Positions 15,441 to 16,604 of a stretch of 42,723 nt of DNA are shown in pieces (position 1 is the first letter of the stretch; each line of letters begins with the position of its first letter). The stretch comes from a virus: positions 1-42,723 of the IMG/VR virus record IMGVR_UViG_3300046816_000422. One strand, written 5' to 3'. The notes under the pieces were generated by a model. The model did no database searches. It saw only the letters and a list, made by a program, of their open reading frames with translations, and was not told the origin of the DNA. Made by a program: the position numbers and the translations under genes.

Positions 15441-15517
15441 TCGGCCTGATCCTGGTCGCCGCCTTCATCGGCGTCCGCCGCTATGACCGGACGCGGGGCG
15501 AGCGGCTCGACCTCTAG
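15437..15517 (+). CDS. 26-aa membrane peptide
   Basis: GTG overlaps the previous stop (GTGA) and TAG ends at 15517. The peptide MIGLILVAAFIGVRRYDRTR plus GERLDL is one hydrophobic helix followed by positive charges, the form of a single-pass inner-membrane peptide. The last base of its stop codon is the first base of a tRNA-like stem (see 15517-15560). Too short for homology; the overlap supports translation. Confidence 0.45.
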   Translation: MIGLILVAAFIGVRRYDRTRGERLDL

Positions 15518-15560
15518 CGCGCTTGGAGCTTGGCGCCGGTTCGATTCCGGCGCCGCGCCT
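15517..15560 (+). ncRNA. mini tRNA-like element 1 (acceptor + T-arm)
   Basis: GCGCG (15517-15521) pairs with CGCGC (15554-15558). Between them a short linker leads to a T-arm: stem GCCGG (15535-15539), seven-base loop TTCGATT (15540-15546), stem CCGGC (15547-15551); the stem can be extended to GGCGCCGG/CCGGCGCC. The loop is a canonical tRNA T-loop. D and anticodon arms are replaced by about 13 bases. It begins with the G of the preceding TAG stop and is followed by CTTGTACCC. A second element with the same plan is at 16564-16604. Confidence 0.55.
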
Positions 15561-15593
15561 TGTACCCATGAACGCAACCGAAGGGAAGTCACC

Positions 15594-16205
15594 ATGAGCG
15601 AGATCACCACGGACCGCGAAGCAGCGGCCAAGCAGCTTGCGAGTGATGCCGTCAAGGTCTGGCGCTATCTCTCGCCCACCGAGAAGGATGAGTTCCGCCG
15701 AGAGGCACAGAAGCGGATCGACCGAGACGGCGGCGTGCGGATCCACCCGAGCGAAGATGAGACCGACGTCGCCGCGTACGTGTCGGTCTCGGCTCGCGAC
15801 ACGTTGGACGATCTGTCCGTGGTCGTCGCAGCTGCTAGCGGCGACGCGGGCAACTACACGGCCGAGCAGCTCGAACGGGTCGGGTTGCCGGGTGATCCCG
15901 ATATGCCCGGTGACGACGCGCAGGAGACGCTCTACGCGCTGCCTCTCTCTGTAGACCGGACGGTCTGCTTTGAAGTCGTGTTGGGCATCGGTGGGCCGGA
16001 TCGGCGGATCGTGGTCGAATGCGACGCGGTTGACTCTCGCGTCCTGGAGCGCGGCGAGAACGTGCTCCAGAGTGTCGGCTATGAGATCCGGCGGGTCCTC
16101 TACCGCTACTCCTGGTCGGGCAGCGCCGAGCTGGAGCTGTCTGGCACCGATCGGGAGACGGCGGAAGCCTTCGCCCGGCAGGTTGTCCCGGAGCTGGTCG
16201 AATGA
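15594..16205 (+). CDS. hypothetical protein, 203 aa
   Basis: ATG at 15594 with GAAGGGAAG before it. Residues 10-50 are helical (AAKQLASDAVKVWRYLSPTE, KDEFRREAQKRIDRD), 60-90 a helix, 110-200 alternating strands and helices (RRIVVECDAVDSRVLERGE, EIRRVLYRYSWSGSAELELS). No motif recognised. It follows mini tRNA-like element 1 and overlaps the next gene by four bases (ATGA). Acidic overall. Function unknown. Confidence 0.6.
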   Translation: MSEITTDREAAAKQLASDAVKVWRYLSPTEKDEFRREAQKRIDRDGGVRIHPSEDETDVAAYVSVSARDTLDDLSVVVAAASGDAGNYTAEQLERVGLPGDPDMPGDDAQETLYALPLSVDRTVCFEVVLGIGGPDRRIVVECDAVDSRVLERGENVLQSVGYEIRRVLYRYSWSGSAELELSGTDRETAEAFARQVVPELVE

Positions 16206-16564
16206 TCCGCGGCCCTGAGTACACGAGCAAGGCGAGACGCGATCGCAACCGACCGATGGTGAAGCTCCCGCGAGCCGAGCTGGCAGCGGCGGTCGGCGCA
16301 TACGACCGGATCCTCGCCATCTCCACCGAGATCCGCGAGCCTCTCGGCCTGGCGCCGGTCGGTGACGGGCAGACCATCGGAGCTGCTCGGGCTCGGCTCG
16401 CTGCCTTCAAGCAGCCACGGGCGAAGGTCAAGGTCAAGAAGGCCAAGCGCAGGGGGCCGAGCGTCACCGCTCTACGCGCCCAGCTGAAGGCCTCTCAGAG
16501 TGAAGTGGCGGAGCTGATCGAGCTGGTCGGCTTGCTGCAGCGGCGCGAGCCGACTGCGGTCTAG
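16202..16564 (+). CDS. basic hypothetical protein with C-terminal coiled coil
   Basis: 120 aa, ATGA overlap with the preceding gene. N-terminal ~20 residues basic, then a helix (RAELAAAVGAYDRILAISTE), a Lys/Arg-rich linker (RAKVKVKKAKRRGPSV) and a C-terminal helix with leucine spacing (LRAQLKASQSEVAELIELVG). Looks like a DNA- or RNA-binding oligomer. The final G of its TAG stop starts mini tRNA-like element 2. Confidence 0.55.
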   Translation: MIRGPEYTSKARRDRNRPMVKLPRAELAAAVGAYDRILAISTEIREPLGLAPVGDGQTIGAARARLAAFKQPRAKVKVKKAKRRGPSVTALRAQLKASQSEVAELIELVGLLQRREPTAV

Positions 16565-16604
16565 GGCGAATGGCGTTGCCGGGGTTCGATTCCCCGGCGC
16601 CCCT
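16564..16604 (+). ncRNA. mini tRNA-like element 2 (acceptor + T-arm)
   Basis: GGGCG (16564-16568) pairs with CGCCC (16598-16602). T-arm: CGGGG (16580-16584), loop TTCGATT (16585-16591), CCCCG (16592-16596). As in element 1 the first stem base is the G of a TAG stop, the D/anticodon region is replaced by 11 bases, and the 3' side continues CTTGTACCC. Stem sequences differ between the copies while pairing is kept, a sign of selection on structure. Element 2 precedes the gene at 16639. Confidence 0.55.

What the first reader, a model, noticed from the sequence alone, without database searches (positions are those of the whole stretch)
15517..16604. Two mini tRNA-like elements (acceptor plus T-arm) placed exactly at TAG stops of the cargo operon
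At 15517-15560 and 16564-16604 a five-base acceptor-like stem and a perfect T-arm with loop TTCGATT fold together, D and anticodon arms being replaced by 11-13 bases. In both the first paired base is the G of the upstream TAG and the 3' side continues CTTGTACCC. Stem bases differ between copies but pairing is kept. Seen: sequence and pairing. Known: minihelices of this kind are minimal substrates for RNase P, RNase Z and some tRNA-binding enzymes. Inference: cistron-processing or stabilising sites, or cassette borders. I know of no described phage element with this form.
Basis: partly seen in the sequence, partly recalled or inferred. Interest (0 to 1): 0.85.

Follow-up and report, generated by a model that had tools for sequence, protein, structure and literature searches.

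The report
Mini-tRNA punctuation between phage genes
Between the genes of this phage, and of many unrelated bacterial and archaeal viruses, lie tiny tRNA look-alikes that lack the anticodon arm; they most likely let the host's tRNA-cutting enzymes chop one long viral message into separate gene messages, much as tRNAs do in mitochondria.

Summary
Both window copies (15517-15558, 16564-16602) are anticodon-less mini-tRNAs: a 5-7 bp acceptor, a tiny D-hairpin with GG in its loop, and a T-arm with a canonical T-loop. The stems covary, and so does the D-hairpin, which was never used for selection (65 of 88 Watson-Crick; permuted mean 19, maximum 30).

The element occurs in many virus records, up to 16 copies each, on the coding strand, at or just after stop codons, often directly before a second hairpin, the ribosome-binding site and the next start. 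It is present but unannotated in cultured Gordonia, Streptomyces and Mycobacterium phages and in haloarchaeal viruses of two realms. In four cultured phages it fills 45 of 51 annotated gaps of 55 nt or more. T4, lambda, Giles and phiC31 lack it; 396 actinobacterial genomes lack its commonest actinophage form. No Rfam family matched, and no paper describing it was found in the open-access library.

Best explanation: tRNA-style punctuation. RNase P and RNase Z cut at the mini-tRNA, splitting polycistronic RNA into units, many with a hairpin-protected 5' end. Anatomy and positions are shown; cleavage is inferred.

The parts
15517..15558 (+). Mini-tRNA copy 1: acceptor 15517-15521 with 15554-15558, D-hairpin CT-TGG-AG 15522-15528, T-arm 15533-15553 with loop TTCGATT 15540-15546
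   Evidence: Sequence; descriptor; model R1 E 1.5e-9
16564..16602 (+). Mini-tRNA copy 2: acceptor 16564-16568 with 16598-16602, D-hairpin AA-TGGCG-TT, T-arm with loop TTCGATT 16585-16591
   Evidence: Sequence; model R2, which contains no window-type copy, E 1.1e-9; model R1 E 1.6e-5
15515..15517 (+). TAG stop of the 26-aa frame 15437-15517, split by copy 1 (TA|G)
   Evidence: Sequence; overlap with the stop in 44% of 110 copies against 1.5% at random positions
16562..16564 (+). TAG stop of the frame 16202-16564, split by copy 2 (TA|G)
   Evidence: Sequence
15559..15593 (+). Leader after copy 1: CTTGTACCCATGAACGCAACCGAAGGGAAGTCACC with a ribosome-binding site; sister phages form a hairpin TTGTAC..GTACAA here, the window copy lacks its 3' arm
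16603..16638 (+). Leader after copy 2, CTTGTACCC...GAGAGGATCCCCACC, with a ribosome-binding site
15594..16205 (+). Open reading frame, 203 aa, first gene after copy 1; relatives near elements in sister phages
   Evidence: no Pfam match
16202..16564 (+). Open reading frame, 120 aa, overlaps the previous one by four bases and ends in copy 2
16639..17617 (+). Three overlapping frames after copy 2 (115 aa; 73 aa with a phage zinc-binding domain; 138 aa matrixin-like metallopeptidase)

Best explanation
The elements are anticodon-less mini-tRNAs that punctuate a polycistronic phage mRNA. The RNA folds into an acceptor helix, a tiny D-hairpin and a T-arm; the GG of the D-loop can meet the T-loop as G18-G19 do in a tRNA elbow. 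The host's tRNA-maturation enzymes then read it as a precursor tRNA: RNase P cuts before the first acceptor base, and RNase Z cuts after the base that follows the acceptor (no CCA is encoded). One long transcript becomes separate short mRNAs, each starting with a short leader, often a hairpin that would shield the new 5' end, and each ending at or just past its stop codon. Where the element overlaps the stop (TA|G, T|AA) the cut would leave U or UA, which A-tailing could rebuild into a stop, as in mitochondria. Shown: the fold, its covariation, coding strand, position after stop codons, following hairpin, virus specificity. Inferred: transcription through the sites, recognition by RNase P and RNase Z, cleavage, and stop repair.
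For: Fold with controls at zero. Covariation of acceptor and T-arm and of the D-hairpin, which was not selected for (65 of 88 Watson-Crick, permuted maximum 30). 101 of 110 copies within -30 to +20 nt of a same-strand frame end, 44% splitting the stop, control 1.5%. Copies only on the coding strand in cultured phages. 45 of 51 annotated gaps of at least 55 nt hold one. 52 of 110 copies followed within 6 nt by a perfect hairpin, control 5-8%. Same module in viruses of Actinomycetota and of haloarchaea, including another virus realm, which points to a machinery both domains share. CCA encoded in 1 of 143, near chance, so it is not kept as in many tRNA genes. Between element and next start there is typically only about 45 nt, filled by leader and ribosome-binding site, so most downstream genes must be read through from upstream.
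Against: No cleavage, RNA-end or transcript data were available. RNase P cutting at copies that split the stop would make stop-less mRNA unless A-tailing repairs it. Helices of 11 bp and base 73 = C in many copies (64 of 94 metagenomic) are unusual for tRNA. The following hairpin is missing in about half the copies, including both in the window.
Confidence: 0.6

Rival explanations
1. The mini-tRNA is bound but not cut: a tRNA-like 3' stabiliser or translation insulator that protects mRNA from exonucleases or keeps ribosomes from running on, acting through a host protein that binds the tRNA elbow.
For: Position right after stop codons, only where genes do not overlap; stable structure; a stop split by a cut would be costly, so no cut would be simpler.
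Against: Any stable hairpin would do for an insulator, but T-loop, GG and a 11-13 bp acceptor/T helix are kept. The frequent hairpin just downstream suits a new 5' end.
Confidence: 0.2
2. DNA recombination site: borders of exchangeable gene cassettes, recognised as folded single strand like integron attC sites.
For: Arrays of small genes, each followed by an element; structure kept while sequence varies; gene content changes at an element between sister phages.
Against: Always on the coding strand and in register with stop codons and ribosome-binding sites. tRNA-specific D-loop and T-loop are kept. Stems differ between copies of one genome, so there is no common crossover core.
Confidence: 0.08
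3. Transcription terminators or attenuators without a U run.
For: GC-rich hairpin at the end of genes; terminators without U runs have been described in actinophage phiC31 (from memory, not checked in the source).
Against: No U run follows the T-arm in most copies. Little room for a new promoter before the next start. Control phage phiC31 has no copy. A simple hairpin would not need a mini D-arm and a T-loop.
Confidence: 0.06
4. Trans-acting tRNA decoys or Y-RNA-like partners of a Ro protein, made in many copies to occupy host tRNA-binding factors.
For: Bacterial Y RNAs mimic tRNAs (cited in PMC12282133), and Gordonia phage VanLee encodes a Ro-like protein near its array.
Against: A Ro domain is found in 1 of 19 records searched. 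A decoy need not sit at nearly every non-overlapping gene junction.
Confidence: 0.04

Closest known systems
tRNA punctuation of mitochondrial polycistronic transcripts (RNase P and RNase Z)
   Same: tRNA-shaped RNA between genes on the sense strand, at or overlapping stop codons; predicted cuts at both borders; split stops that A-tailing could complete
   Different: Phage elements lack the anticodon arm, are not translation tRNAs, stand in DNA viruses of bacteria and archaea; cutting not shown
[quoted passage not shown]
   Same: tRNA-like piece in a longer RNA, used for end formation by tRNA-maturation enzymes
   Different: Animal nuclear lncRNA, one site per gene; here many copies in viral operons of prokaryotes
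Bacterial Y RNAs with a tRNA-like module (Ro-associated)
   Same: tRNA mimic without a decoding anticodon arm (general knowledge; tRNA mimicry cited in PMC12282133)
   Different: Separate noncoding RNAs with a Ro partner; here intercistronic, and Ro missing in 18 of 19 records
tmRNA tRNA-like domain
   Same: Acceptor, reduced D region and T-arm without a normal anticodon arm (general knowledge)
   Different: No tag-coding part and no encoded CCA; only short T-arm matches of 15-18 model positions, far below the gathering score
3' tRNA-like structures of plant RNA viruses
   Same: Viral tRNA mimics recognised by tRNA enzymes (general knowledge)
   Different: Genome ends of RNA viruses; here internal, many copies, in DNA viruses
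Intergenic repeats and the attP tRNA fragment of halovirus HF2 (PMC8707807)
   Same: Repeated intergenic elements of a haloarchaeal virus; one truncated tRNA-like sequence
   Different: HF2 repeats are AT-rich promoters, and the tRNA-like piece is one likely integration site matching tRNA genes of some Halorubrum species
Integron attC sites
   Same: Folded, sequence-variable sites after the stop of each small gene in an array (general knowledge)
   Different: No shared core, tRNA-type loops, strict coding strand

Membership tests
Canonical tRNA gene | Anticodon arm | tested here: not met
   Linker between acceptor and T-arm is 8-20 nt and holds only one small hairpin; ARAGORN finds no tRNA in the window or at the copies checked
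Canonical tRNA gene | T-arm with TTCRANN loop stacked on an acceptor helix | tested here: met
Canonical tRNA gene | D-loop GG able to meet the T-loop | tested here: met
   GG kept in the loop of a covarying hairpin; the tertiary contact itself was not tested
tRNA punctuation element (RNase P / RNase Z site) | tRNA-shaped RNA between cistrons, sense strand, next to stop codons | tested here: met
tRNA punctuation element (RNase P / RNase Z site) | Cleavage at both borders in vivo | not testable with these tools
   No RNA data available
Bacterial Y RNA | Ro (TROVE) protein encoded nearby | tested here: not met
   1 of 19 records
Intrinsic terminator | U run directly after the hairpin | tested here: not met
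   3' flanks listed; only isolated exceptions such as L200
Integron attC | Shared core sequence at the crossover site | tested here: not met
   Acceptor stems and tails vary between copies of one genome
Integron attC | Integron-type integrase in the carriers | not tested
   Not searched for systematically
tRNA-derived attP | Single site identical to the 3' part of a host tRNA | tested here: not met
   Many copies with different stems per genome; identity with host tRNAs was not searched
Any Rfam family | Match at the gathering score | tested here: not met
   window; four other carriers, permissive search, nothing above gathering score at the elements

The most novel reading that the evidence does not exclude
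An undescribed class of RNA, anticodon-less mini-tRNAs, spread through unrelated DNA viruses of bacteria and archaea, uses the universal tRNA-maturation enzymes to cut polycistronic viral RNA into separate messages, many with hairpin-protected 5' ends, splitting stop codons that A-tailing then restores: mitochondrial-style tRNA punctuation in phages.
Probability: 0.5. Interest if true: 0.95.

Novelty: categorically new. Interest (0 to 1): 0.9.

Why it matters
It would be a new RNA family across viruses of two domains of life, sitting unannotated in phages grown in teaching and research laboratories (M. smegmatis, S. coelicolor, Gordonia). It suggests that the tRNA-punctuation mode of gene expression, known from mitochondria, is also used by DNA viruses of prokaryotes. 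It marks expression units in phage genomes that are mostly genes of unknown function, offers a minimal natural candidate substrate for RNase P and RNase Z, and is a compact part for splitting synthetic operons. The key test is simple and uses existing phage-host pairs.

Tried and rejected
phiC31-type terminators without U runs: phiC31 has no copy. HF2 intergenic repeats: promoters, different thing. Y RNA/Ro link: Ro only in VanLee. Relaxed pattern GTTCGANNC..CCTTGTAC: almost all matches are chance coding sequence. Most hits are one repeated coding motif, not elements. Genome-contig scan: 13 hits; only L314 and L323 look genuine, and both match virus-contig copies; the Amycolatopsis and Prauserella hits look like coding sequence. 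R2 on 149 actinobacterial genomes found nothing, but only a few candidates per genome are scored there, so this is weak; the exact-pattern search of 396 genomes (0 hits) is cleaner. BLAST leads in Flavobacterium elemoA and Caulobacter phiCbK were not copies. A loose D-hairpin test was too permissive and was replaced by the strict register test. All ten paper searches found no description of the element; the library holds no preprints and misses most subscription journals.

Full report
WHAT IS IN THE WINDOW. The two elements are real and sit as described. Copy 1 runs 15517-15558, copy 2 16564-16602, both on the + strand, each with the G of an in-frame TAG as its first paired base. Each has a five-pair acceptor helix, a T-arm with loop TTCGATT and a short linker. 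Neither ARAGORN nor Rfam reports anything. Folding energy alone is not exceptional, so everything rests on comparison.

A FAMILY, NOT A PAIR. Scanning 2.9 million virus contigs for the T-loop plus the CTTGTACC tail brought five further copies in other phages (four of them 41-43 kb records), each with different but pairing stems and each starting at CTAG. Scanning for the linker CTTGGAGC next to a T-loop brought about 60 more in unrelated virus contigs. A descriptor that asks only for an 11-13 bp acceptor/T helix around a T-loop gives 131 hits in the held loci, 0 in the reversed sequences and 0-1 with altered loops. The loci had been chosen by T-loop seeds, so the absolute number is biased; the zero controls and the many hits without the seed linker are the evidence.

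THE LINKER IS A MINI D-ARM. The linker reads x1x2-NGG-x2'x1': CT/AG, CA/TG, TT/AA, AA/TT, AT/AT, GA/TC, CC/GG and GC/GC all occur. Pairing here was never used for selection. In 88 elements without the seed linkers, 65 form both Watson-Crick pairs, against a mean of 18.8 and a maximum of 30 in 1000 permutations. In Gordonia phage VanLee the hairpin grows to 3-5 pairs in some copies, still with GG in its loop (read). On alignment A2 all but one pair show changes on both sides, with 99.7% of cells paired. On A4, from Mycobacterium and Streptomyces phages, 96.3% of cells are paired, against 66.5% in shuffles; the inner D-pair is weaker there (9 of 21 unpaired). The acceptor and T-arm helices of both alignments had been selected for pairing, so for these the reversed-sequence and altered-loop controls carry the weight. 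GG in a D-loop facing a TTCRA T-loop is the tRNA elbow (G18-G19 with positions 55-56; established knowledge). So the element is a tRNA without its anticodon arm, mostly 39-47 nt long.

WHERE THEY SIT. Of 110 copies, 101 have a same-strand open reading frame that ends within -30 to +20 nt of the first acceptor base; 44% overlap the last one or two bases of the stop codon, against 1.5% at random positions. In cultured phages the descriptor finds copies only on the coding strand. Copies cluster: 11 in 4 kb in record G029, 10 in G041, 7 in G039. In four cultured phages whose genes were annotated by others (VanLee, Riparian, Damien, Joe), 45 of 51 gaps of at least 55 nt hold an element and 0 of 31 shorter gaps do; the next start codon is typically about 45 nt further on. 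The zero for short gaps is partly trivial, since an element needs about 40 nt; the 45 of 51 is not. Two weaker Riparian hits do not lie inside an annotated gap.

WHAT FOLLOWS THEM. 52 of 110 copies are followed within 0-6 nt by a perfect hairpin of at least 5 bp, against 8% further downstream and 5% in shuffles. Its sequence differs from copy to copy, and a leader with the next start codon follows, often with a clear ribosome-binding site. The window copies lack it; sister phages keep TTGTAC...GTACAA at that place.

WHO HAS THEM. Cultured carriers: Gordonia phages VanLee and Cafasso; Streptomyces phages Joe and phiHau3; Mycobacterium phages Damien, Konstantine, Predator and Riparian; haloarchaeal HRTV-27, HHTV-2 and HCTV-2; and SH1 and HCIV-1, which belong to another virus realm. 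BLAST rows suggest many more (135 records cover at least 80% of a Joe copy). No copy was found in T4, lambda, Giles, phiC31 or Flavobacterium elemoA; the few weak hits in phiCbK cover only a T-arm, several inside annotated tRNA genes. Model R2 contains no window-type sequence, yet finds window copy 2 at E 1e-9. The pattern ACTGGCAGACA..GGTTCGANTC is in 47 virus stretches and in 0 of 396 actinobacterial genomes. In the archaeal viruses the T-arm and acceptor are clear, but there are few examples and the D-hairpin is less regular, so common descent with the bacterial-phage forms is not proven.

HOW IT MOST LIKELY WORKS. RNase P and RNase Z exist in both Bacteria and Archaea and read the acceptor/T helix and the elbow (established knowledge). 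An RNA with exactly these parts, in sense orientation after a stop codon, often with a hairpin just beyond, is best explained as a cutting site. RNase P would cut on the 5' side and RNase Z on the 3' side, freeing short mRNAs. CCA is not kept (1 of 143, near chance), which allows RNase Z. Where the stop is split (TA|G, T|AA), A-tailing could rebuild it, as in mitochondria. None of the cutting steps is shown here. Terminators fit badly, because U runs are missing and there is little room for a new promoter. A recombination site fits badly, because stems vary inside one genome and the register is that of an mRNA. Y RNA fits badly, because Ro is found in one of 19 records.

MODULES. In sister phage G003 the order of genes around copy 1 is kept, but after copy 2 the gene differs; homologues of the window's gene after copy 2 lie next to elements in two other relatives. 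Elements thus tend to mark module borders, which may simply follow from self-contained expression units.

LIMITS. Literature was searched only in an open-access library without preprints, so novelty is provisional. The host of the window phage is unknown; its terminase matches cultured phages only distantly, at 24-32% identity among the listed hits, several of the better ones on Actinomycetota. Several hosts of the metagenomic carriers are unknown as well.

Noticed in passing
L331 (NC_073474.1): array about 72-82 kb, Ro gene 65751-67367, tRNA-Arg 65454-65525: Gordonia phage VanLee has 16 mini-tRNAs in one block of unknown genes, beside a Ro-like RNA-binding protein and a tRNA-Arg gene. Ro is absent from the other carriers searched, so the link is probably chance, but it is worth a look.
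   Followed up: partly
L324, L291, L295, L296, L333, L334 (3' flanks of the elements): A second hairpin, different in each copy, begins 1-6 nt after about half of the elements, then the leader and start of the next gene follow.
   Followed up: partly
L335 3145-3204 (SH1), L342 (HCIV-1), L327 and W06 (HRTV-27), L336 (HHTV-2): Haloarchaeal viruses of two realms carry the same arrangement of stop, mini-tRNA and hairpin; unannotated.
   Followed up: partly
window 15437-15517 (+): A 26-aa frame with a hydrophobic N-terminus starts by a GTGA overlap with the previous gene and ends in mini-tRNA copy 1; probably a small membrane peptide.
   Followed up: no
window 17201-17617 (+): Predicted exported matrixin-like metallopeptidase (Pfam Peptidase_M10) at the end of the small operon, also in three sister phages.
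   Followed up: partly
L087 1824-2240 (minus strand of the locus): GC-rich repeats with T-arm-like hairpins in a 101 kb contig, of a different kind from the phage elements; left out of the statistics.
   Followed up: no
window 42258-42320 (-): Weak match to model R2 (E 4e-4) near the window end.
   Followed up: no
L333 6634-6764 (Damien, record 42553-42571): A copy that seems to have lost its D-hairpin, with acceptor and T-arm only; possibly a minimal or decaying form.
   Followed up: no
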